From: Pseudomonadota bacterium | GTDB lineage: Bacteria > Pseudomonadota > Gammaproteobacteria > Burkholderiales > Rhodocyclaceae | Direction of reading: 5' to 3' | Assembly (NCBI GenBank): GCA_018241665.1 | Contig: JAFEDK010000005.1 | Location: 124,001-188,000, forward strand | Length of the DNA: 64,000 nucleotides | In this document: positions 3,222-61,788 of the stretch, piece by piece | How the letters are laid out: each line of letters begins with the position of its first letter | Position numbering within the stretch: the stretch's first letter is position 1 | Program-made: the position numbers and the translations under genes | Notes under the pieces: generated by a model | What the model was told of the DNA's origin: nothing | Databases searched by the model: none | The model's input: the letters and a program-made list of their open reading frames with translations, nothing else

Positions 3222-4130
3222 ATGGGCGAAGCCAGCAGCCATCCGGTCATGCTCGATGACGAAACCCGGCAACGGCTGGCGGAACGGCAGGCCACCTGCC
3301 CCTTCGTCGGCAGCCTCGTCGCGGAGGGCGTGCTGCCCGTCTGCAACGGGGCGGACGCACCGCTGGCCCGCCTCGAAGATATCCGCACCCTCGGCAACAG
3401 CGGCGGCGGCGACCTGGGCGACCTGCTGGTGCTGTTCGCCGCCGGCAACCACGCCTGCATGGATGACGGGAACGGGCAGCTCGCCCGCCCCGTGCCGACC
3501 GGGCTGTTCTTCCTCGGCTTCCCCGGCTCCCAGGGCGCCCATCCGGGCCACAGCGGCATCCTGATGGGCGACCCGGCGACGCCCGGTTCAGGCCGCTTCG
3601 ATGCCGAGGCCTTCGCCCGCCTCGCCGCCCTGGCCAGGGACGGCTGGATCCGCCGGACGGACATCGGGCATTTCATCGCCGCCAACCTGCACCGCGACCC
3701 GGCGGCCAAAGTGCTCGACAGCCACGTGGTCCGGCTGCTCGCCTCCGATCTGCTGGACCTTGCGGAGAGCGCCGGCAGCCGGCTGTGGCAAAGCCTGTTC
3801 GGCAACGCCGGAGAGCAGGAAGCCGCCCATCGGCGGATGGAGGAGAAGCTGACCCGCCTGCTCGGCGAGGACAACCTGGTGGGGGCGGCAGGCGAGTTCG
3901 GCCTGCTCTTCGCCTTCCTGGCCAACCAGCCCGGCCGCCGGGAGATCGACGGCGAGCCGGCGGTGGATCTGGACGACCTGCTTGCGATGTTCCGCGACAA
4001 GCGCCTGCCCGAGGGCTGGCGCAACTGGAAGAAGACCCGCGGCGACTGGGTGATCCACACCACCGCGCTGCTGCTCAGCGCCGCCCGCGAATACCTCGGC
4101 CTGCAGCACGCCCGGCGCCGGGGTGGCTGA
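3222..4130 (+). CDS. Conserved-looking protein of unknown function
   Basis: A 302-residue protein that I do not recognise. The ATG chosen gives a sensible N-terminus (MGEASSHPVMLDD); the frame is open further upstream but with poor composition. It has no signal peptide or membrane helix, so it is probably cytoplasmic. The N-terminal part holds CPFVGSLVAEGVLP and GGGDLGDLLVLFAAGNHACM; the middle holds PTGLFFLGFPGS and GHFIAANL; the C-terminal third is helical. The CP...LP segment superficially recalls the proximal Cys-Pro region of heme-thiolate (chloroperoxidase-type) peroxidases, but I could not place a distal acid motif, so this is only a hint. It stands alone between divergent and convergent neighbours. 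Confidence 0.7.
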   Translation: MGEASSHPVMLDDETRQRLAERQATCPFVGSLVAEGVLPVCNGADAPLARLEDIRTLGNSGGGDLGDLLVLFAAGNHACMDDGNGQLARPVPTGLFFLGFPGSQGAHPGHSGILMGDPATPGSGRFDAEAFARLAALARDGWIRRTDIGHFIAANLHRDPAAKVLDSHVVRLLASDLLDLAESAGSRLWQSLFGNAGEQEAAHRRMEEKLTRLLGEDNLVGAAGEFGLLFAFLANQPGRREIDGEPAVDLDDLLAMFRDKRLPEGWRNWKKTRGDWVIHTTALLLSAAREYLGLQHARRRGG

Positions 4131-4148
4131 CGCCGGGTCCGCCGGCCC

Positions 4149-4787
4149 TCAGCGGGAGCGGGCCGCCATGTGCTCGGCGATCAGCTCGGTCTGGAAACGG
4201 CTCACCGCATCCGGATCGGTGAAGATGGTCTGGGTATTGTTCTGGGCCTTGTAGCCCGGTCCGCCGGCCTGCCCCTTGACGACGAAAGTGCCCTCCCCCG
4301 ACGCCGACCAGTTGGTGGAGCCTTCACCGCCGACCTTGCCGTCCGCGACGAAGCCCTTGGTGTGGCTGATCTGGTGGGTGGCCGACTGGCCGACGACGAA
4401 GTAGGTGTTGAAGGCGGTCGGATTGCGGGCCATGTCGGAGTCGAGCAGCTTCTTCTCGTGCACGCCGCCGGCCTGGCTCTTGTCCAGGGTGATCATCATC
4501 GTGATCCCGGGATTGGCGGCGAGGGTCATCAGGATGTCGTTCAGCTCATCGTCGTCGAAACCGAACATGTTCATGTAAAGGGAAACGCTGACCCGCGACA
4601 GCACATGCTTGAGGATCTCATGCACATCGTCGCGGCCCACATAGAACAGGTGGAAGTCCTTGCTGGCATGCGTCGAATAGGATTTCTCCTGGGTGTATTG
4701 CTGCAGGTCGAGCAGATCGAAGCGCTGCAGGGTCTGGGTCGGATCCTGAACCACATTGCTGGGGCTGGTGGTGGCGAGCGTATCCAT
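4149..4787 (-). CDS. Phospholipase D-like domain protein with one HKD motif
   Basis: A 212-residue protein with a single phospholipase D/nuclease motif, His142-x-Lys144-x4-Asp149, followed by GSTNWS (residues 156-161), the usual GSxN element. Single-HKD proteins of this size (Nuc or mitoPLD type) act as dimers, cleaving phosphodiester bonds through a phosphohistidine. There is no signal peptide, so a cytoplasmic location is likely. The first 45 residues are polar and match nothing I know. It converges with the gene at 3222. The substrate (nucleic acid or lipid) cannot be told from the sequence. Confidence 0.8.
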   Translation of the reverse strand: MDTLATTSPSNVVQDPTQTLQRFDLLDLQQYTQEKSYSTHASKDFHLFYVGRDDVHEILKHVLSRVSVSLYMNMFGFDDDELNDILMTLAANPGITMMITLDKSQAGGVHEKKLLDSDMARNPTAFNTYFVVGQSATHQISHTKGFVADGKVGGEGSTNWSASGEGTFVVKGQAGGPGYKAQNNTQTIFTDPDAVSRFQTELIAEHMAARSR

Positions 4788-4902: not shown

Positions 4903-5110
4903 GCGCTTCAGCCCTCCATCAACCAGCAGAAGGCCAGCTTGCTGTCAGGAGAAGCAGATGTCGGTAGGCCGGTTGCTGTTCAGGCCTGGTCCAGTGGGGG
5001 CGAATTCATTCGCCCTCTGTCCCTTCAATGACGCCTGCGGGCGAATGAATTCGCCCCCACGGAGTTGGGCTTGCCTTCAGTAGCCGGCCGGTTCGGAGCG
5101 AGCGCGGGAT
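4903..5110 (-). pseudogene. Decayed, internally deleted copy of the amidotransferase 5' region and its upstream flank
   Basis: 4903-4946 closely matches 2361-2405 inside the amidotransferase gene. 4947-4986 then matches 2734-2773 near that gene's start, with the intervening roughly 328 bases missing. The segment corresponding to the start codon has been lost. A 67-bp repeat follows (4994-5060), then a flank (5061-5110) resembling 2867-2940. The copy is in the same orientation as the intact gene and cannot encode a working enzyme. This looks like a segmental duplication followed by deletion and drift. The identification rests on my reading alignment, not on a computed score. Confidence 0.75.
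4994..5060. repeat. 67-bp paired-palindrome repeat (REPIN-like), copy 2
   Basis: Two perfect 22-base arms around a 23-base spacer. Its spacer is the reverse complement of the copy 1 spacer with about 19 of 23 matches, although the flanking DNA of the two copies is in the same orientation. Confidence 0.92.
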
Positions 5111-13166: not shown

Positions 13167-14519
13167 TCAGTAGGCGAAATCCAGCGCGGCGCTGATCACA
13201 TTCATGCGCCCGTCCCACTGGATGTTGGAACCGCGAAACAGGAATATCGAATCGCTGCTGCCCCGGATGGCATCGGCCTGGAACTTGAGGGCCCAGTTGG
13301 GCCGGAAATCCCAGCGCACCCCCAGCGTTACCGTGTGCTGCTGCAGATGGGTGGCCGCGACGATCTCCTTCCCGAGCGCATTCAGGGCGGGCCCGAAGGG
13401 GCCGGCCGGCACCGTGGTGACCCGGCCCGGCGTGCTCTTCACCCAGGAATACCCCAGATAAGGCGTCAGCGCGCCAAAGCGGTAGGCCCCGAGCACGAAA
13501 CCGGCCCGGCTGTCCTCGTAGGATTCGCTCTGATGCTTGATCCGGCCGATCATCCCCTGCAGCTGCAGCGCCCCCTTGTCGTAAACCACGCCGACCGAAT
13601 CGAAGCGGGAGTGGGTATTGACGGTGCTGAGCTCCGGCAGCTGGCCGGTGAGATCGACCGGGGCGATCGCCCTGAACGGCGCCAGCGCCGGCTTCGAGGC
13701 GATCAGCAGATTGGTCAGGTAGTTGAGGGGCAGCTCGTGCGACGAGAACTTCACCTCCATGTGGGTGGCCCGCAACTGCCACGGCCCCTTCAGATAATCC
13801 AGATAGCCGCCGAACAGCTGCGACCCGCTGATGTCCCAGGTCACCGGATCGAAGAAACCGGTTCGTTCCGGAGAGCGCCCCCCGTACAGCTTGGCGCGCA
13901 GCACCCCGTCCCCCAAGCCGGTGCTCGCCATCACGTCGGCGCCGTCGAAATAGGCGAACACCAGCGAACCGTAGAAATCAGGAGGCGGGCGGATGGCGAT
14001 GTTCGAATAACCGACCAGCCGTGAATCGGCCAGCATGTAGATCTCCGGCGCCAGCCGCCCGACGCGGACCTGCAGGTCCGGCGAGAACTCGTGGCGGAGA
14101 AAGGCCCACGACACCTCCGGCGTGTGGTTGCCCTCCGGGCGATAGCGGCTGATCACCTGCAAAGCCCCCTCGGTTTGCGGCCCAAGGCGCAGGTTCATCT
14201 GCACGCCCAGCACCGAATCGTTGCGGGTCGTCCACTGCCGGGAGATCCCGCGCGGCTGCGACAGATCCCGCACGAACTCGGCGCCATTGCTGTCCGACCG
14301 CGCCACCCCGAGGGTGCCGAAGCCCTTGAACTCCACCGGCCAGCCCGCGGCCGGCAAGGCCGTGTCCTCGGCATGGACGGAAACGGACGGCAGGACGGCT
14401 GCCATCACGAGAAGCCTGGCTAGCGCGCGAATCGAGGCGTAGAGATCGACGTCGTCGCACATCGGCATGGGACCTGGGACTCGAGAAAACCGGTTGAAGC
14501 TGGGGAGGGGACCGGTCAA
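13167..14519 (-). CDS. Outer-membrane porin-like beta-barrel protein
   Basis: A protein of about 450 residues with an N-terminal signal (ARLLVMAAVLPSVSVHA) and a mature part of alternating, aromatic-rich strands. It ends in aromatic Tyr (ALDFAY), the usual outer-membrane assembly signal. It resembles the short porin-like proteins paired with PstS-like sensory proteins. The start is uncertain: a TTG at 14519 has a strong AGGAGG 11 bases upstream, whereas ATGs at 14468 and 14462 give a more usual signal length but lack a ribosome site. As first gene of the operon, it may admit the solute sensed by the downstream kinases. Confidence 0.8.
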   Translation of the reverse strand: MTGPLPSFNRFSRVPGPMPMCDDVDLYASIRALARLLVMAAVLPSVSVHAEDTALPAAGWPVEFKGFGTLGVARSDSNGAEFVRDLSQPRGISRQWTTRNDSVLGVQMNLRLGPQTEGALQVISRYRPEGNHTPEVSWAFLRHEFSPDLQVRVGRLAPEIYMLADSRLVGYSNIAIRPPPDFYGSLVFAYFDGADVMASTGLGDGVLRAKLYGGRSPERTGFFDPVTWDISGSQLFGGYLDYLKGPWQLRATHMEVKFSSHELPLNYLTNLLIASKPALAPFRAIAPVDLTGQLPELSTVNTHSRFDSVGVVYDKGALQLQGMIGRIKHQSESYEDSRAGFVLGAYRFGALTPYLGYSWVKSTPGRVTTVPAGPFGPALNALGKEIVAATHLQQHTVTLGVRWDFRPNWALKFQADAIRGSSDSIFLFRGSNIQWDGRMNVISAALDFAY

Positions 14520-14850: not shown

Positions 14851-14885
14851 GGGCATCGGGACAGTTTTTACATATGAAAAAATAA

Positions 14886-14918
14886 AAACCCCCGACGCCT
14901 ATTGAGCGCCGGGGGTTT
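14886..14918 (-). terminator. Rho-independent terminator, minus-strand direction
   Basis: A 13-base stem (AAACCCCCGACGC with GCGCCGGGGGTTT, one mismatch) and 7-base loop. On the minus strand the stem is followed by a run of T residues. It would end minus-strand transcripts coming from the GAPDH-like operon (15571-18163), which would then carry the 21-bp array in their 3' untranslated region. Confidence 0.8.
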
Positions 14919-15003
14919 CAAAATGGTGACTCTCTTCCTGTTGGGCCCCGCCCCCCGTTGGGCCTCTCCCGCTGGGACTCTCCTGTAGGGACCCTCTCCC
15001 CAC

Positions 15004-15070
15004 GTGGGGGCGAATTCATTCGCCCGCAGACTTCGATCAACCGGCTGAGGCCAAATGAATTCACCCCCAC
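15004..15070. repeat. 67-bp paired-palindrome repeat (REPIN-like), copy 3
   Basis: A perfect left arm, 23-base spacer with core TCGATCAA, and a slightly decayed right arm (AAATGAATTCACCCC). Confidence 0.9.
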
Positions 15071-15182: not shown

Positions 15183-15540
15183 AAGATTTTTTCATGCCGA
15201 GGAATCATTTCTTCATATGAAAGAAAGCCTTTTTCAGATGACAGAAATGCGGAGACGCATGACAGAACCAGCGGGACACGCCCCCCAATCCCTCAGCCAT
15301 GTGTCGCAACCATCCAGCCACATGCCAGAACCATTCCGACACGTGACGCAGGTATTCCGTCATGTGTCGCAATCATCCAGCGGCGTGTCGCGCACCTTTT
15401 GTCATGTGACAAAACCAGTTTGTGGCGTGACGCGGTGCTTTTTCCATATGACAAAACATGTTTGCCATATGGAAAAAACAGTTTTTCATGAGGAAAAATG
15501 ATTTTTTCAGGCGGAGAAATCATTCTTTCATAGAGAGTGT
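15183..15540. repeat. Phase-locked degenerate 21-bp tandem array, at least 17 units
   Basis: Seventeen consecutive units with no insertion or deletion. Hexamer centres of the type CAYRTG begin at 15193, 15214, 15235, 15256, 15277, 15298, 15319, 15340, 15361, 15382, 15403, 15424, 15445, 15466, 15487, 15508 and 15529. A weaker unit (CACGCC) at 15172 keeps the phase. Many units are themselves near-palindromes, for example TTTTGTCATGTGACAAAA. Units diverge strongly in sequence while spacing is invariant. Because 21 is a multiple of three, open frames arise on both strands, including a 94-codon heptad frame from the ATG at 15217 to 15501 (H-M/V-T/S-E/Q/K-P pattern). Whether that frame is translated is unknown; no ribosome site precedes it. 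Confidence 0.9.
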
Positions 15541-15570
15541 CGGTAATTTTGTGTTCAACGCTCCCTGACC

Positions 15571-16557
15571 CTATCCAAGAACTGCATGCTCCGACAGCCA
15601 ATTCACGAGCTCAAGGTAACGAAATGCCGAATTTTCGTTGTCGAAATAACCCGCCAGACAGAGAGTATCTCCCTTCAAGGCAATACCCGCCTCATAGAAC
15701 ATAGCATTCCAGGGAGCCCCCAACGCGCCTTGCACGCCCGGATCCTGGTCAAGGAGCGCATAACGCCCTGCAAGCACACCATCGGTGCAGGCTGCTTGCA
15801 GAGCGCTGAGGAAAACCGGCCGCGAAGGCGGATCACAGAGCCGAAAGCGCAAATCGATCAACGAGGCGCCCGTGTATGGAATGAGCGCATAGCCAACAAA
15901 GAAGCGATCAGCGTCGAGCCATGGCAACAGACGGGGGGCCATAAACTCCAGCGTACAGGTGCGGCGTGCAGGATGGGCATGCTCGACAAGACGGTGGGCG
16001 GGGACGTTATGGATGATGTTCGCCTGCGCCTCGCGCACACCGCAAGTGTCATGCAGCCAGTGCGCCAGCGGTACGAAAGCATTAACAGTGCAGGACCCAT
16101 AGGAAATCACTCGAGATTTACTATGAAGATCTCCCTGATTGAACCCCATCACCAACGTCTGATCCGCGTCCCAGCTAGTGGCAGAGATAAGTACATGACC
16201 GGTCTTGCCTTTAAGGAAAGGCTGGCAGTCTGCCGCTATGGAATACCGCCCAGAACACTCCAGCCACAGCCCAGGCTCTCCCAGCCAAGGAGCATGAATG
16301 GCAGAACCGTGGTGGAAGGCGATGCATAGACGCACCCCATCTGCACGGGTGAGACACAAACAGCCCGCCTCCACCGTCGGTGCAGCCGAGCTGAAATCCA
16401 GCCGATCGTGTTCTCTAAGCAGAGTACAGACGGCCTCCGCGCTCAGATATTCGTCACAGGCGTAGTCGATAGAAAACTCGCACTCACCAGCAGCCAGCCA
16501 CGCATGGATGAGATGCTGGCCAAACCGGCCAAGCCCATTCAAGGCCACGGAAATCAT
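15571..16557 (-). CDS. Glyceraldehyde-3-phosphate dehydrogenase-like protein
   Basis: A 328-residue divergent member of the GAPDH superfamily. The Rossmann start VALNGLGRFGQHL replaces the usual NGFGRIGR. The catalytic Cys156 lies in SYGSCTVNAF (canonical SNASCTTN), and His183 in IIHNVPAHR matches the base position. It is unlikely to be the glycolytic enzyme. Its place as last gene of a three-gene overlapping set with a cytidylyltransferase and a LicD-type transferase suggests oxidation or reduction of an activated polyol or aldehyde for surface decoration. The ATG overlaps the upstream gene by ATGA. Confidence 0.8.
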   Translation of the reverse strand: MISVALNGLGRFGQHLIHAWLAAGECEFSIDYACDEYLSAEAVCTLLREHDRLDFSSAAPTVEAGCLCLTRADGVRLCIAFHHGSAIHAPWLGEPGLWLECSGRYSIAADCQPFLKGKTGHVLISATSWDADQTLVMGFNQGDLHSKSRVISYGSCTVNAFVPLAHWLHDTCGVREAQANIIHNVPAHRLVEHAHPARRTCTLEFMAPRLLPWLDADRFFVGYALIPYTGASLIDLRFRLCDPPSRPVFLSALQAACTDGVLAGRYALLDQDPGVQGALGAPWNAMFYEAGIALKGDTLCLAGYFDNENSAFRYLELVNWLSEHAVLG

Positions 16558-16994
16558 GTCGTCCCGCCTTGACGAATGCGCTCAAGAATCAGCGTAGTCG
16601 ACAACCCCTTAGTCTCTGGTGCGAAACTCACCGAGATGCCCCGCTGCGCTAGGGCCGGAATCAAGCGCGCCCAACGGGCACTCCCCTCCCATCCGCCCCC
16701 CGCCACAACATGATCAATCTGCCAGCTGGCAATCCATACCGCCGCAGCGTCTGTCTCCTCGGTGCTGCAGGGCTGCAACGCTGCTTCATCCACCCAGCCA
16801 AGGCCACGCACGATTTCGAGCCGCTCGAGCTCCGGAATGATTGGAAGCTTTTTCTTTGCACTCACACTGACGGCGTCGGTGCTGACAGCGACAACAAGGA
16901 CACGCCCCTGCTCACGGGCGTACTGCAGATAACGGAGGTGCCCGACGTGGAAAAGGTCAAACACGCCAACGGCCAGAACGCGGCGAGGCGTCAT
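16554..16994 (-). CDS. TagD/RfaE-type cytidylyltransferase
   Basis: A 146-residue nucleotidyltransferase of the glycerol-3-phosphate cytidylyltransferase class. It has the HxGH motif in GVFDLFHVGHLRYL (HVGH at 17-20) and a C-terminal KGLSTTLI resembling the STT(K/R)I signature. It should activate a phosphorylated polyol or similar with CTP. An ATG at 16994 overlapping the upstream stop (ATGA) was preferred to a GTG six bases earlier. It sits between a LicD-like protein and a GAPDH-like enzyme, fitting a CDP-activated donor pathway. The exact substrate is not determinable. Confidence 0.85.
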   Translation of the reverse strand: MTPRRVLAVGVFDLFHVGHLRYLQYAREQGRVLVVAVSTDAVSVSAKKKLPIIPELERLEIVRGLGWVDEAALQPCSTEETDAAAVWIASWQIDHVVAGGGWEGSARWARLIPALAQRGISVSFAPETKGLSTTLILERIRQGGTT

Positions 16995-18163
16995 ACGCAC
17001 GCCTCACTTTCAACGACGAGTGTTTGCGCAATCTGACAAGAGAGAACTGCCTCCGCCTGCCGCAAGACCTCGTCATCAGGCAGATGGCGAAGGGTATGAC
17101 GCGCCAAGGACAGGGCTTTATTGAGTCTGCCAAGAACCCAGCTGCTATATATTCGCGCAAACGCATAGCACTGGGTCAGCACAGAACAGCCCCGCATATT
17201 GCATGCCGCAATGACAGTATCGAAGTCAGGGTCGGGCACTCGCCAGCACTCGCCGTACAAAGGCACGAGGATTGCCTCAGGGTCGGCCAAATGCCAAACC
17301 TTACCGTGTGGACTGTTCCTTGGCTGCAATGTCAGATCAGGAAACTCGGTAACACGGCTCCAGGGGTGTTCGGGACGTTGGAACCAGAAGCCGCTGATCA
17401 CCTTGCGGGTTACAGGATCGGGCAGGAAACCGCACAGATCTAACGCCACCCCTGGTCCATGCCATTCTTGGGGCGTGACCATTCCATCCATGTTGATCTT
17501 GCGCTTCCACCCTGCAGCCTTCAGGCTGGCAGCCGCAGCTTCCATCTGCTCAAAAGGCAATCCGATGTCCAGATCTTTATCGAAAGGCAGCAAATGGCCT
17601 TCACGCGTTAGCCCGAGCAAGGTGCCCGAGGTAGCAAAGGCGTGAATGCCCGCCGTTGCCAGTTGAGCCAGCACTTGCCATAGAGTGTCTTCCGCCGCGC
17701 GATGGTCGAACGCTGCAGGTGATGGCGGCGTAATGGCGTGTTTGGGTCGCTGGCACTGGTAATGCAAGGCTGCCCTGAAATGGGCAAGGGCTTGCTGCAG
17801 CGCCCCCTGGACCTGCAGACAGCGCCCAGCTCCGGTGTGAGACTGACTGTCGTCCGGTTCGAGGGTCAGCGCCTGTCGAAACATCCCCAGCGCAGCCTCC
17901 GTTTGACCTGCCTGCTGGAGGATACCGCCTTGCAGACGATAAATTGCTGCATGTCGAGGATTGATCTGGGCCAGTTGTAGTAATTGCTGCCACGCGGCTT
18001 GATACTGCCCAGCAGCAATTTGTTGCCCCACTTGATTGCAAGCGACGTCAATGTCAGCGGGACGCACTGATTCTTCATCGACGCGAACAGGATGCACATT
18101 CATGCAATTTGGAGCTTGAATTGACACATTGAAAATTGGCGTGGAGCTTCGGGCAGGAGCCAT
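16991..18163 (-). CDS. TPR plus LicD-family phosphotransferase
   Basis: A 390-residue protein. Residues about 40-135 form tetratricopeptide-like repeats (AALGMFRQALTLEPDD, QALAHFRAAL). Residues about 155-330 form a LicD/fukutin-type nucleotidyltransferase-fold domain with SGTLLGLTREG (179-189) and the acidic metal motif FDKDLDIGL (194-202). LicD-family enzymes transfer phosphocholine or another phospho-alcohol from a CDP donor to a glycan. It is first in a minus-strand set with a cytidylyltransferase that could supply the donor. The start is uncertain; Met21 at 18103 is an alternative and neither has a good ribosome site. Confidence 0.8.
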   Translation of the reverse strand: MAPARSSTPIFNVSIQAPNCMNVHPVRVDEESVRPADIDVACNQVGQQIAAGQYQAAWQQLLQLAQINPRHAAIYRLQGGILQQAGQTEAALGMFRQALTLEPDDSQSHTGAGRCLQVQGALQQALAHFRAALHYQCQRPKHAITPPSPAAFDHRAAEDTLWQVLAQLATAGIHAFATSGTLLGLTREGHLLPFDKDLDIGLPFEQMEAAAASLKAAGWKRKINMDGMVTPQEWHGPGVALDLCGFLPDPVTRKVISGFWFQRPEHPWSRVTEFPDLTLQPRNSPHGKVWHLADPEAILVPLYGECWRVPDPDFDTVIAACNMRGCSVLTQCYAFARIYSSWVLGRLNKALSLARHTLRHLPDDEVLRQAEAVLSCQIAQTLVVESEACV

Positions 18164-18310: not shown

Positions 18311-21300
18311 TTAGACGATCAGCAGGGTGTCAGCAGAAGAGCTGAACGAAGCGGTGCTGAGGTCAACCAGACCGGTGATCTTGACGATGATGTCGGTGTT
18401 GTTCACAAACGCGGAGGCGTTGTTCGACACGTTCTCGATCACGTAGGTGTTGCCGCTGAACTGGAACCAAGCCACATCACCGGTATCGCTATTGGCGATT
18501 GCAGCATTGGCCAAGTCTTGGAACACAGCGGTGTCACCCAGGGTCACCTTGGCAGACACGAAGTCAGCAGCAGCAGCCGTGAACTTGATCACGTCGCCTG
18601 CAGCCAGGTCGGTGATGGTCGCATAGCTGTTGACGTTGGTCGTGGCATTGCCGATGTTGAACACGTCGTTGCCAGCGCCACCGGACAGGGTTGCCAGGTC
18701 ACCAGTCACGATCAGGGTGTCAGCACCTGCGCCACCGTTCAGGGTCTGGCTGTTGCCAGTAGCCGTCAGGGTGTCGGCAGCGGAACCGCCGGTGATCACA
18801 GCGCTGTTGACCGCGGAGCTGAAGGCCAGCTTGCCGGTCAGATTGGCAGCATTGACCGAGGTCAGCGACGCGCCAGCAGCCGTCAGATCCAGATCGGAGT
18901 TGCCGGTCACCACGATCGACTTAACGTCGCTGTCAGAGACAGTCAGGGTGGCCTTGCTGATGGTGGCAGTGCCGGTCACGACGTTCACCGGGGTGGTGTC
19001 GGTAGCCGTGATGTTGACCGTCTCGACACCAGCAACAGCAACGGTACCGAAGTTCAGATCAGCAGCATCAACCTTGGTCACGATGTTGAAGATGTCAGCG
19101 GTCGTGCTGGTTGCATCGGCCATAGTGACGGTCACGCCAGCGCCAGCTCCGGTCAGTTCCAGGGTACCGTTGTTGGCCATCTTGTCCAGGGTCAGGGAGC
19201 CACCTGCACCAGAAGTAGTGGTTGCAGCTGTACCCGTACCGGAGAGAGTTGCAGTGCCATTGGTAACGGAAGCTTGAGCGACATCACCATAAGCAGCCGT
19301 GTAGGTAATGGTTACGACCGGGGTAGTGCCACCCAAATTAGTTGCGGTTGCATCACCAATCGCGGTACCCGCAGCCACGGCGTTGAGCGCAGCAACAACT
19401 TTGTCAGCGATACCCTGAGTTGTATCTGCCGCAAGCACCGCAACAGTCACACCGGCAACCGTGAAGTTGCCATCAGCACCAGCAGTTACACCCGTGAGGT
19501 CAATGGTTTGAACCTCAGCACCTGCAGGCGCGTTTGCACTGATGACGTAGTTGATGTCATCCAGATTAGACAGATCAACCGTCTTGGTCGCGCCGTTAGC
19601 CAATGCACCCAGGCTCAGCTTCTCGAAGCCATCGATCTTGGTTTCAAAGACGTTGGAAGCAGAAGCGGTTGCCGCATCAGCGACATCCATCACCAGGGTA
19701 TCGGTGCCGTCACCAGCAACGATCGCTTCAGTCAGGGACGTGGTGCCAGAGGCCAGGGTCACCTTGTCGTTGCCAGCGCCGGTGTTGACAGCCTTGGAAA
19801 CGGTGGTGGAAGACAGGGTCACGTTGTCCGCACCAGCGCCGCCGGTGTAGGTAGCCTTGGAGGCGTCAACAGTAGCAGTCACGGTGCCGGTGGTGGCCGC
19901 AGTGTTCACCGCAGTCACGTTCGCGCCAGAAGCGTTGATCGTAAGACCAGCGGAACCGCTGACGGTCACAGTCTTGAGCGCAGTCAGGGTCGCACCGCTC
20001 AGATCAACCGCCTTGTCACCAGCCACGGTCAGGGTTTGAACGCCGCCAGCCACCAGGGTCACGTCGGAGTCAGCGCCGGTGGCGGTGACGTTCAGCGTGG
20101 TGTAGGTGCTGCCGATGTCCAGCGAAGAGCCGGTGCCGATGTTGTTCAGGGACAGAGCCAGGGTGGTGGCCGCCGTGTTGTCGACATCCAGATCAGTCTT
20201 GCTGTTGGCCAGGGTCAGGGAGGTCAGCGCGTCGGAATCGATTGCCGACGATGCACCATAACCGTCGAGGGACACCGCAGCCAGCACGTCGGTGCCGGTG
20301 ATGTTGCCTTCGATGGTCACGGTGCCGCCAACCACGCCCAGCACGCCGGTGACGGCAGTGGTTTCCGCAGAACCAGCAGCGACATCCACCGCGGACACGT
20401 TACCCGCCGCAGCGGTATCGTTTACCGTCAATGCAGCGACGTCAGCCTTGGTTGCCGACGTAAAGGTGACCGTGCTCACGCCAGCCGCAGTGGTGACTGC
20501 ACCGGTCGAACCGCCGACCGTGCTGAAGGTCCCGCTGTACACACCATTGCCAGCAGGCGCAGAACCTTGCGTGGCGCCATTGGTCAGGTTTGCGAAAGCG
20601 GCAGCCACTTCCGCGGCGGTCAGCGCCTTGGAGGCGGTAAAGGTCAGGCCATTGACGACGACCGTTTCGGTAGCAGCCAAAGCAACGAACGTCACCTTCT
20701 GGGTTTCGTAAGCGCCAGCAACAGCGGCCACGCCATTAACGGCAGCAACAGCAGCGGACTGATTCACGGTCACGGAGGTCGTGGCCGAACTACCCGTCAC
20801 ATTGACGTTGCTTTGAGTGATTTCATTGCCGATCGTGGTGGTATCGGTAGCAGCAGCGGAGCTATCCGAAGTCGCGACTTGGTTCACGGTAACCGTGGTG
20901 CCGCCAACGATGGTGATGGCGCCGCGCGTGGCAGCTGCATCGGCAGCAGCGTAGGCTGCGCCAGTCGTGGTCAGGGCAACAGCGCCGGACGGCATGTCAG
21001 CAGCAACAGAACCAGCGGTCGTGTCACCAATCTTGACGGTACCCGTAGTCGCCTTGGAGGCGGTCACGGTCACGGAGGTGCCACCGTCGATGGCGATGGC
21101 GCCAGAGGTTTGATTGGTATCGGTAACGGTCACGGAGCCGGCACCAACCGTCGTGCCGCCGATGGTGATGGCGTTGGCTGCGGTCGCGTCCGTCACAACG
21201 GTATTCTTGCCACCGTCAACGATGACGGCACCGGTCACGCCGGAGACCGAAACATCGGTGGTCGTAGCAGCCGTAACGGTTGCTGCGGTTGCCTGAGTAA

Positions 21301-22183
21301 CAGCAACAGACTCCAAGCCGGTGATGTTGGAACCGCTGACATCCACCGTGGCTGCTTGCGCGCTACGGACGGTGACCTTCTCGATGCCATCCAAAGTGGC
21401 GGCGGGGAAGGTAAAGTTGCCAGCATGCTGGTCGGTGATCTGCAGGGTATCGGTGCCAGCACCGCCCTTGAGCACATCCAGAGCACCCAGGGTGTGCGCG
21501 GTGTTAGCGACGTCGTAATCTGCAACGAAGGTGTCGTTACCGGCAGTACCCGTGAATGCAGCACCTTGATCCACGCCAACGGTGAGCGTGAAGGTGCCAG
21601 CGACACCAGCAGCGACCTGTTCAGCGGCGGGAACAGCGGTCACGGCAACACCAGCTTCGGTGCTACCGGTAGACAGGTAGTGAGCAACCGGGTCAACGCC
21701 GGCGGCAACGAAAGCGGCCTGCACATCAGCGGCCGTCCAGTCGGTCTTGCCGTTGTAGGCAGCGGCGTTCAGCGCAGCAGCCTTGGTCGCCAGGTAGGCG
21801 CTGAGGTCAAAAGCGTTGGACGGGTTGACGTTTTCGGTCCAGCCCACCTTTGCGAAGTGGTCGTAGGCGCTGGTGAAGCCGGCGTTCTGCAGGGCCAGCG
21901 CGACGGTGTCGGCGGTCCAGTTGGTCTTGCCCTGGTAGGCAGCGGTGTTCAGCGCAGCGGCCTTGGCAGCCAGATATTCGTTGGTGTTGAAGTAGTCGTT
22001 CGGGTTGGTACGCTCGACCAGGCTGAACTGTTCAAAATGGCTGTAGGTCGTGTAACCCGCAGCCTCAATCGCAACCTTCAGCTGGTTGATGTTGGCGTAG
22101 TCGTTATTGCCGATGGACTTCAGTTGTGCGAGCTTGCTGGTCAGGTACGAAGCTTCGTCAAACCAAGCGGGAATTGCAGCCAT
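18311..22183 (-). CDS. RTX-type S-layer-like secreted protein
   Basis: A 1290-residue secreted protein, rich in Thr, Ala and Val, with no cysteine that I could find and no Sec signal. The N-terminal 170 residues contain repeated DUF4214-like units (for example AYDHFAKVGWTENVNPSNAFDL). Calcium-binding RTX-like nonapeptides occur near 215 (GTAGNDTF) and in the C-terminal region (NGGAGADTL, SGGAGNDVF). It ends in a type I secretion-like tail with ADTLLIV. This matches the layout of RsaA-like S-layer or adhesin proteins. A strong AGGAG site precedes the ATG, as expected for an abundant protein. The cognate secretion ATPase is not in the window. Confidence 0.85.
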   Translation of the reverse strand: MAAIPAWFDEASYLTSKLAQLKSIGNNDYANINQLKVAIEAAGYTTYSHFEQFSLVERTNPNDYFNTNEYLAAKAAALNTAAYQGKTNWTADTVALALQNAGFTSAYDHFAKVGWTENVNPSNAFDLSAYLATKAAALNAAAYNGKTDWTAADVQAAFVAAGVDPVAHYLSTGSTEAGVAVTAVPAAEQVAAGVAGTFTLTVGVDQGAAFTGTAGNDTFVADYDVANTAHTLGALDVLKGGAGTDTLQITDQHAGNFTFPAATLDGIEKVTVRSAQAATVDVSGSNITGLESVAVTQATAATVTAATTTDVSVSGVTGAVIVDGGKNTVVTDATAANAITIGGTTVGAGSVTVTDTNQTSGAIAIDGGTSVTVTASKATTGTVKIGDTTAGSVAADMPSGAVALTTTGAAYAAADAAATRGAITIVGGTTVTVNQVATSDSSAAATDTTTIGNEITQSNVNVTGSSATTSVTVNQSAAVAAVNGVAAVAGAYETQKVTFVALAATETVVVNGLTFTASKALTAAEVAAAFANLTNGATQGSAPAGNGVYSGTFSTVGGSTGAVTTAAGVSTVTFTSATKADVAALTVNDTAAAGNVSAVDVAAGSAETTAVTGVLGVVGGTVTIEGNITGTDVLAAVSLDGYGASSAIDSDALTSLTLANSKTDLDVDNTAATTLALSLNNIGTGSSLDIGSTYTTLNVTATGADSDVTLVAGGVQTLTVAGDKAVDLSGATLTALKTVTVSGSAGLTINASGANVTAVNTAATTGTVTATVDASKATYTGGAGADNVTLSSTTVSKAVNTGAGNDKVTLASGTTSLTEAIVAGDGTDTLVMDVADAATASASNVFETKIDGFEKLSLGALANGATKTVDLSNLDDINYVISANAPAGAEVQTIDLTGVTAGADGNFTVAGVTVAVLAADTTQGIADKVVAALNAVAAGTAIGDATATNLGGTTPVVTITYTAAYGDVAQASVTNGTATLSGTGTAATTTSGAGGSLTLDKMANNGTLELTGAGAGVTVTMADATSTTADIFNIVTKVDAADLNFGTVAVAGVETVNITATDTTPVNVVTGTATISKATLTVSDSDVKSIVVTGNSDLDLTAAGASLTSVNAANLTGKLAFSSAVNSAVITGGSAADTLTATGNSQTLNGGAGADTLIVTGDLATLSGGAGNDVFNIGNATTNVNSYATITDLAAGDVIKFTAAAADFVSAKVTLGDTAVFQDLANAAIANSDTGDVAWFQFSGNTYVIENVSNNASAFVNNTDIIVKITGLVDLSTASFSSSADTLLIV

Positions 22184-37396: not shown

Positions 37397-37463
37397 GTAG
37401 GGGCGAATTCATTCGCCCTCTGCTGGTGGATTGACCACCGCGGGCGAATGAATTCGCCCCCAC
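37397..37463. repeat. 67-bp paired-palindrome repeat (REPIN-like), copy 4
   Basis: Near-perfect arms (the left begins GTAGGGG) around a 23-base spacer, in the gap between ubiC and recG. Confidence 0.92.
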
Positions 37464-61721: not shown

Positions 61722-61788
61722 GTGGGGGCGAATTCATTCGCCCTACGCCGGTCGATCAAGCTCCGCGGGCGAATGAATTCGCCCCCAC
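61722..61788. repeat. 67-bp paired-palindrome repeat (REPIN-like), copy 6
   Basis: Two perfect arms and a 23-base spacer with core TCGATCAA, between the convergent MBL-fold hydrolase and metK genes. Confidence 0.93.

What the first reader, a model, noticed from the sequence alone, without database searches (positions are those of the whole stretch)
15183..15540. Strictly phase-locked degenerate 21-bp palindromic array in a 3' intergenic region
At least 17 units keep an exact 21-base period with no indel while the unit sequence has drifted widely. Each centre is a CAYRTG-like hexamer, often within a longer palindrome. Twenty-one bases is two helical turns, so all centres face the same side of the helix; it is also seven codons, giving a heptad peptide frame on the plus strand and an open frame on the minus strand. 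Invariant spacing with divergent units suggests selection on spacing (cooperative protein binding or a structured RNA) or on a heptad-repeat peptide. It lies directly behind the GAPDH-like gene and before a minus-strand terminator, so it would be in that operon's 3' region.
Basis: partly seen in the sequence, partly recalled or inferred. Interest (0 to 1): 0.85.

Follow-up and report, generated by a model that had tools for sequence, protein, structure and literature searches.

The report
Dispersed 21-bp palindrome arrays in Zoogloea
Between genes of this bacterium lie arrays of up to eighteen 21-base palindromes set end to end; they recur at different places in related species, show no sign of encoding a peptide, and look like DNA-level elements of unknown function that change fast in sequence while mostly keeping their spacing.

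Summary
In detail: window 15186-15542 is 17 units of exactly 21 bp. It is not unique. A profile finds such arrays in 10 of 23 genomes of the genus (Zoogloea, inferred), five of them in this genome; the few hits outside the genus are other short repeats. They sit in gaps between unrelated genes. At two convergent loci, relatives without an array have far shorter gaps, so the arrays are added DNA. Units of different arrays are almost as alike as units of one array: all look drawn from one palindromic profile.

The peptide reading fails: no synonymous excess in any of six frames. Selection on spacing is only partly supported: in-phase orthologues have threefold fewer phase-breaking indels than other intergenic DNA (p 0.014), but the deficit loses significance once decayed arrays are counted (p 0.26), among them arrays at the equivalent locus of two relatives. 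Junction-centred palindromes show compensatory double changes (31 of 109; mean 11.3 at other centres). Best reading: a lineage-specific DNA-level palindrome lattice, probably a register of protein sites. Main rival: an old repeat kept in register by template switching.

The parts
15186..15542 (.). array of 17 imperfect palindromes of exactly 21 bp, no spacers, two interleaved sets of dyads (unit centres and unit junctions)
15571..16557 (-). divergent GAPDH-like gene whose stop codon lies 28 bp from the array; the array would be in its 3' transcribed region
   Evidence: ORF; PDB sequence match E 2.3e-18; Pfam none at 0.001
14885..14919 (-). intrinsic-terminator-like hairpin beyond the array, in the direction of the GAPDH-like gene
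15004..15070 (.). REP doublet (GTGGGGGCGAATTCATTCGCCC ... GAATGAATTCACCCCCAC), a separate dispersed repeat next to the array
13167..14519 (-). porin-like gene on the other side (weak Porin_4 match below its cut-off); its relatives in G020 and G021 also lie beside a decayed array

Best explanation
This is one copy of a dispersed, non-coding DNA element of the Zoogloea lineage: a lattice of up to 18 imperfect 21-bp palindromes with dyads at the unit centres and again at the unit junctions, added into the gap between two genes. Shown: copies in several genomes and loci, longer gaps than at empty sites, one shared palindromic unit profile, no coding signal, and compensatory change across the junction dyads. 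Inferred: the array works at the DNA level. Dyads repeat every 21 bp (two helical turns), so that a symmetric, probably dimeric, DNA-binding protein could occupy many sites on one face of the helix. The bound or hairpin-extruded stretch would act as a boundary or 3'-end element between neighbouring transcription units. The protein and the biological effect are not known.
For: Profile search: matches in 10 of 23 genus genomes; arrays were fetched and looked at in 9 of those 10 (not G008). All 30 fetched array loci (window plus L051-L079, chosen because the profile had hit them) score above a shuffled null, and 21 of 30 hold a run of at least 10 in-phase units. Units from different arrays share one profile: within-array nearest-neighbour similarity is barely above that of units drawn from other arrays (mean z 0.6, combined 2.6, 17 arrays); unit identity 0.44 between arrays and 0.42-0.48 within. 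Two half-site kinds, CA and GG, occur in both orientations inside arrays. Positions -2 and +3 are G or C in 96% and 95% of 255 units. Polarised changes erode the profile less than neutral mutation (-0.88 +- 0.17 against -1.51; 155 changes, triples share sequences). Compensatory double changes at junction dyads 31 of 109, against a mean of 11.3 (sd 3.2, maximum 19) at the 41 other centres (12 pairs of arrays, not all independent). Both strands fold better than shuffles in the 12 arrays tested (z -2.55 to -9.13, orthologues among them). Neighbour genes differ from locus to locus. Two convergent loci without an array have 83-136 bp (four genomes) and 42-144 bp (fourteen genomes) between the aligned flanks, against about 515-545 and 430-447 bp with one.
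Against: No binding protein was identified and no expression or binding data exist here. Some arrays decay with indels (G020 and G021 beside glmS; G009/G005) or are absent from close relatives, so no single copy is essential. Arrays diverge faster than flanking genes (G016/G020: array 72%, flanks 93%). Unit-centre dyads show no compensatory excess (14 of 128). Some copies lie upstream of genes (moeA; an unidentified ORF at g2), not between convergent genes. The spacing deficit of indels is not significant when decayed arrays are counted.
Confidence: 0.39

Rival explanations
1. An old selfish or neutral repeat. An ancestral array of similar units spread early to several gaps, then decayed. Copying between palindrome arms (template switching) and recombination at multiples of 21 bp keep the lattice in register without any selected function.
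For: A lattice with two sets of dyads maps onto itself under hairpin copying (inference). Junction-dyad compensatory changes are what template switching gives; PMC8604942 (abstract seen in a search listing) says template switching homogenises inverted-repeat arms. Differences between orthologues cluster next to each other in several pairs. Indels of 21 or 42 bp make up 3 of 9 in arrays and 0 of 15 in control DNA (one 42-bp and one 1-bp event were counted in two pairs, so there are only two independent multiples of 21). Paralogous arrays in G018. Decayed arrays exist, and the overall indel deficit is not significant once they are counted.
Against: With unit divergence of about 0.48 substitutions per site per lineage, about 4 phase breaks per 357-bp array are expected at the control indel rate (2.6 at the pooled array rate), yet I count 9 breaks in the 30 arrays, though detection favours in-phase arrays. 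The profile is eroded less than neutrally. Units show almost no sign of recent duplication.
Confidence: 0.35
2. A structured RNA: transcribed hairpin arrays in 3' untranslated regions that protect or terminate mRNA.
For: Strong predicted folding on both strands, edges within about 65 bp of stop codons at several loci, a terminator beyond the window array, compensatory pairs at junction dyads.
Against: No intrinsic-terminator-like site in the three arrays scanned. G-U against A-C mismatches are skewed in some arrays, the g2 set above all, but not in one direction throughout, and skew of the DNA would mimic this. Some arrays lie upstream of genes or between divergent genes. No Rfam family at gathering score in the arrays of the seven loci scanned. 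The centre is palindromic in sequence, which RNA pairing alone does not need.
Confidence: 0.13
3. A supercoiling-related site between genes, working like gyrase-binding BIME-2 arrays.
For: Intergenic palindrome arrays, several between convergent genes; E. coli gyrase sites are over-represented in BIME-2 and its motif has GC oscillating at 10.75 bp (PMC6379681, passages read). AT content of the arrays has some excess power at 10.75 bp (1.54 and 1.62 against shuffled 0.97 and 0.79) and more at 11 bp (3.25 and 2.18 against 0.83 and 0.82).
Against: Power at 10.5 bp is only what the unit profile gives (1.45 and 0.51), while 21 and 7 bp dominate. The 11-bp excess may be a side band of slow changes in composition along the array (inference). 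Not tested against gyrase itself.
Confidence: 0.1
4. A heptad-repeat peptide encoded on one strand.
For: Twenty-one is seven codons, and long open frames cross much of the window array on both strands. One frame is open in 17 (plus) and 13 (minus) of 35 array segments, with fewer nonsense changes than expected on the plus strand.
Against: Synonymous observed/expected 0.91-1.00 in six frames; stops in the CAT-ATG frame in 28 and 27 of 35 segments; palindromic units make open frames on both strands easy.
Confidence: 0.03

Closest known systems
REP / BIME elements (RAYT-mobilised repetitive extragenic palindromes)
   Same: intergenic, palindromic, clustered, dispersed in a lineage, often at 3' ends; REPs lie within 1 kb of four of the five arrays of this genome
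   Different: no GTAG/GTRG head, no inter-REP spacers, units not near-identical, a handful of arrays per genome; 6 of 10 array-bearing genomes have no detectable Y1 transposase
BIME-2 gyrase sites of E. coli
   Same: palindrome arrays between genes that could act on the chromosome as DNA
   Different: 21-bp register without spacers; periodicity near that of the gyrase motif weak and inconclusive
Iteron or operator arrays for cooperative DNA-binding proteins (from general knowledge)
   Same: many sites at about two helical turns
   Different: chromosomal, several loci, no replication or partition gene among the 20 neighbours searched (one YhcG-type nuclease has a sub-cut-off ParB-HTH match); sites much more degenerate
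Tandem satellites / VNTRs
   Same: head-to-tail units, some indels in multiples of the unit
   Different: neighbouring units hardly more alike than units of other arrays; shared profile in the arrays examined
CRISPR arrays
   Same: regular spacing of palindromic motifs
   Different: no unique spacers, no near-identical repeats

Membership tests
REP/BIME | conserved GTAG/GTRG head next to a GC-rich palindrome (PMC2817692, passages) | tested here: not met
   unit consensus ATTTTGTCACGTGACAAAATC has no such head
REP/BIME | usually more than 100 copies per genome, many nearly identical | tested here: not met
   72 degenerate units in 5 arrays in this genome (17+17+18+4+16); unit identity about 0.42-0.48
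REP/BIME | cognate REP-associated tyrosine transposase in the genome | tested here: not met
   Y1_Tnp not found in 6 of 10 array-bearing genomes (G005, G008, G009, G016, G020, G021), found in 4; some are incomplete drafts; one RAYT lies 1.5 kb from an array in G019
BIME-2 gyrase site | GC content oscillating at about 10.75 bp beside a cleavage motif | tested here: inconclusive
   power 1.54 and 1.62 at 10.75 bp (shuffled 0.97 and 0.79, sd about 0.26), 3.25 and 2.18 at 11 bp, 1.45 and 0.51 at 10.5 bp
BIME-2 gyrase site | gyrase cleavage in vivo | not testable with these tools
   needs Topo-Seq or similar mapping
Tandem satellite from unit duplication | neighbouring units clearly more alike than units of other arrays | tested here: not met
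   mean z 0.6 over 17 arrays, combined 2.6; identity 0.476 at distance 1 against 0.441 between arrays
Heptad-repeat protein gene | purifying selection on the reading frame | tested here: not met
   six-frame synonymous ratio 0.91-1.00; stops
Known structured RNA | match to an Rfam family | tested here: not met
   no match at gathering score in the arrays of 7 sources scanned
Intrinsic terminator cluster | GC-rich hairpin followed by a T run inside the array | tested here: not met
   0 found in the window, L055 and L057 arrays; other arrays not scanned
Cooperative protein-binding array | a protein that binds the units in register | not testable with these tools
   no candidate protein identified
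CRISPR | near-identical repeats with unique spacers | tested here: not met
   unit listings show no spacers

The most novel reading that the evidence does not exclude
A new class of chromosomal element in Zoogloea: a two-dyad, 21-bp-register palindrome lattice that nucleates a cooperative protein-DNA assembly in gaps between genes, where register and a loose palindromic profile are kept while the sequence of each site is free to drift; an insulator-like or 3'-boundary device whose protein is unknown.
Probability: 0.2. Interest if true: 0.75.

Novelty: new variant of a known kind. Interest (0 to 1): 0.5.

Why it matters
I found no description of this family of intergenic repeats, and its architecture differs from REPs and satellites. 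It offers a natural test of whether register alone can be maintained, by selection or by template switching, while sequence drifts. Empty sites, filled sites, decayed copies and recent paralogues within one genus that has cultured members make the question directly testable.

Tried and rejected
Peptide in any frame: rejected, with the open second frame told above. Intrinsic terminators inside arrays: none in three scanned; L057 had two promoter-like matches against 0.2 expected, not followed. Known RNA: no Rfam match in the arrays; the RT-12 match at L054 is a separate retron-like locus. RAYT as the driver: presence does not follow the arrays. Strand of a possible RNA from G-U against A-C mismatches: no consistent answer. 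Gyrase-like period: first read as absent from 10.5 bp alone; on checking 10.75 and 11 bp it became inconclusive, and I moved 0.02 of odds. Insertion junctions: the coding flanks of the empty sites align, the short gaps themselves do not, so no junction or target duplication could be read (4 g1 sites, and 6 of the 15 g3 sites that lack the array, were aligned). Relatives outside the genus: profile hits in four other genera (G113; G329, G432, G449) are 2 to 7 copy repeats with closely similar units of other sequence. The exact core in the named species genomes hit 48 stretches; three (L101, L111, L124) carry a long array, all of this genus by contig or name; four others (L088, L089, L090, L099) gave low scores of 22.8-33.7, of which L088 and L099 were looked at and are not arrays; the rest gave none. 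A first test of constraint, the mean profile score at differing sites (0.04 against a neutral -0.07), was dropped because it cannot tell neutral decay from equilibrium; polarised changes were used instead, which parsimony biases towards decay. Of six further pairs aligned for indels I added three; L058/L238 was left out as overlapping the others (107 substitutions, gaps 1 and 52), and L061/L075 and L070/L053 as unalignable (0.41 and 0.51 identity). In the literature searches (listings read) I saw no paper describing these arrays; that covers only the open-licence library held here.

Full report
What is there. Window 15186-15542 consists of 17 units of exactly 21 bp. The match at lags 21, 42 and 63 is 0.56, 0.53 and 0.49 against at most 0.346 at all other lags to 69; among lags 10-60 no other lag reaches 0.45 in any 336-bp stretch of the window. 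Eight of 17 centres are exact CAYRTG, three have one mismatch and six have two (hand count).

It belongs to a family. The genome holds a second array that BLAST can see. BLAST over 100 genomes, this one included, found matches in 6, all in one genus, and all 20 loci then held showed a lag-21 signal. A 104-position profile without base pairs matched 10 of 23 genomes of the genus, 7 of 249 of the family (six of the genus, one other) and 4 of 399 of the order (this genome and three others). I fetched and looked at arrays in 9 of the 10 genus genomes (not G008). The hits outside the genus are repeats of 2 to 7 closely similar units of other sequence. The genus is Zoogloea by inference: contig lengths and array scores tie G018 and G019 to Zoogloea oleivorans records and G020 to the MAG SZAS-76. 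This genome has five arrays of 17, 17, 18, 16 and 4 units.

Anatomy. The unit consensus is ATTTTGTCACGTGACAAAATC (symmetrised). There are two sets of dyads: A at the centre of each unit and B at each junction. Half-sites are mostly of CA or GG kind, in both orientations within arrays, so the lattice has no clear polarity. All 12 arrays folded (orthologues among them) gave better energies than dinucleotide shuffles on both strands. AT content varies mainly with 21-bp and 7-bp periods; 10.5 bp adds little, and there is an excess at 10.75-11 bp that I cannot explain with confidence.

Where the arrays sit. They lie in gaps between genes, with an edge within about 65 bp of a stop codon at several loci. 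Neighbours are unrelated: a Na/H exchanger and an asparaginase, a SIS/glutamine-amidotransferase protein (glmS, name recalled), MoeA, short-chain dehydrogenases, an outer-membrane efflux protein and a GAF protein, a beta-CASP protein, and others (the LysR-type and sigma-54 regulator names at the g1 locus were recognised by eye and not searched). Some loci are convergent, some co-directional, and at the g2 and moeA loci the array lies upstream of a gene or ORF. At the g1 locus four genomes without an array have 83-136 bp between the aligned flanks where G016 has about 515-545; at g3 fourteen have 42-144 bp where G016 has about 430-447, and this genome has 179 bp, with REP repeats in place of an array (distances from the BLAST coordinates). 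The arrays are therefore added DNA; the exact junctions could not be read. Arrays of G018 at three loci are related: L060 and L063 are 80% identical over nine units, L063 and L064 share flanking sequence as well, and L064 is split by what looks by eye like an insertion sequence. The window locus itself: in G020 and G021 the porin-like gene also lies beside an array next to glmS, but that array is decayed and out of phase. The tblastn search with glmS found nothing in the 64-kb window, so here the glmS side is replaced by the GAPDH-like operon. That the window array is the same array rests on the porin side; its sequence identity to the others is only 0.41-0.50.

How they evolve. Flanks of the g1 locus are mostly 93-96% identical between species (89% on one flank of G020/G021). 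The arrays are 95% identical for G016/G021, 72% for G016/G020, and only 53% for this genome against G016, barely above other registers (0.49-0.50), although all four have 14-16 units in phase. Units of one array are only slightly more alike than units taken from other arrays (mean z 0.6, combined 2.6, over 17 arrays). This is either one profile held by constraint or a common early origin with equal decay. Among 155 polarised changes the profile score falls by 0.88 per change against 1.51 for random mutation, which points to partial constraint; the triples share sequences, and parsimony biases this towards decay.

Spacing. In eleven in-phase orthologous pairs there were 805 substitutions, 6 indels that break phase and 3 of 21 or 42 bp; other intergenic DNA of the same loci had 630 substitutions and 15 indels, none a multiple of 21 (Fisher p 0.014 and 0.04). 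Pairs share species, one 42-bp and one 1-bp event were counted twice, and arrays were found by being in phase. Adding three pairs with decayed arrays gives 15 phase-breaking indels per 979 substitutions, p 0.26. Against that, a neutral array with units this diverged should carry about 4 breaks per 357 bp at the control rate, some 88 over 370 units, where I count 9 in the 30 arrays and 3 more in the two decayed ones (my count). Selection on spacing is plausible but not shown.

Pairing. Where both partners of a dyad pair changed between orthologues or paralogues (12 pairs of arrays), 31 of 109 such changes at B dyads kept Watson-Crick pairing, against a mean of 11.3 (sd 3.2, maximum 19) at the 41 other centres; A dyads gave 14 of 128. 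An earlier count over units also showed an excess of pairing at B (z 7.0) and a smaller one at A (z 3.6). Partners in neighbouring units thus co-evolve across the junction. Selection for hairpins or cruciforms and template switching both predict this; the present data do not separate them.

Not a peptide. In six frames the synonymous fraction of changes is 0.91-1.00 of expectation. The CAT-ATG frame has stops in 28 and 27 of 35 array segments, the next frame in 33 and 32, the third in 18 and 22. That third frame has fewer stops than column shuffles (27 and 36 against 73 and 90) and, on the plus strand, fewer nonsense changes than expected (8.5 against 18.7). I attribute this to the linked CA/GG and TG/CC states rather than to translation, because that frame shows no synonymous excess (0.94 and 0.91).

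Comparison with the known. REP/BIME elements are the nearest kind in position and palindromy, but the tested defining features (head, copy number, RAYT) are not met. A gyrase-type oscillation is inconclusive. Literature searches (listings only, plus passages of PMC6379681 and PMC2817692) showed no description of these arrays.

Verdict. A real and, as far as these searches go, undescribed lineage-specific family of DNA palindrome lattices. My preferred mechanism, a register of sites for a symmetric DNA-binding protein acting as a boundary in gaps between genes, is inferred; the strongest rival is a repeat kept in register by template switching.

Noticed in passing
window 15004-15070; also 14830, 5003-5052, 37406-37455, 51043, 61731-61780: Dispersed REP doublets (GGGCGAATGAATTCGCCCCCAC type); 16 of 23 genus genomes match the query stretch, in the listed rows mostly through this repeat. 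Four of the five arrays of this genome have a REP core within 1 kb.
   Followed up: partly
L065:1808-2401 (-) and G000:C3:133924-134235: A REP-associated tyrosine transposase (NF047646) 1.5 kb from the g2 array of G019, and a Y1 transposase about 3.6 kb from the array at the same locus of this genome. Possible link between RAYT and arrays, but six array-bearing genomes show none.
   Followed up: partly
L054:410-1820 (-): Reverse transcriptase (PF00078) with an RT-12 RNA beside it, a retron-like locus about 2 kb from an array of this genome.
   Followed up: no
L133 about 4006-4152 (G113, another genus of the family): A 7-unit 21-bp repeat of different, closely similar units (TTTCAGACSCATGRYGGGAAT) next to a CGGGAAT palindrome. 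A possible young parallel of the same architecture.
   Followed up: partly
window 16554-18163 and 18311-22183 (-): Beside the GAPDH-like gene lie a cytidylyltransferase-like and a TPR/LicD gene and a 1290-aa protein without Pfam match at 0.001; in G020 and G021 glmS stands in this place beside the array.
   Followed up: no
L064:3877-5346 (G018): A 21-bp array split by what looks by eye like an insertion sequence.
   Followed up: no
L057:3850-4450: Two minus-strand promoter-like matches in the array region against 0.2 expected from shuffles.
   Followed up: no
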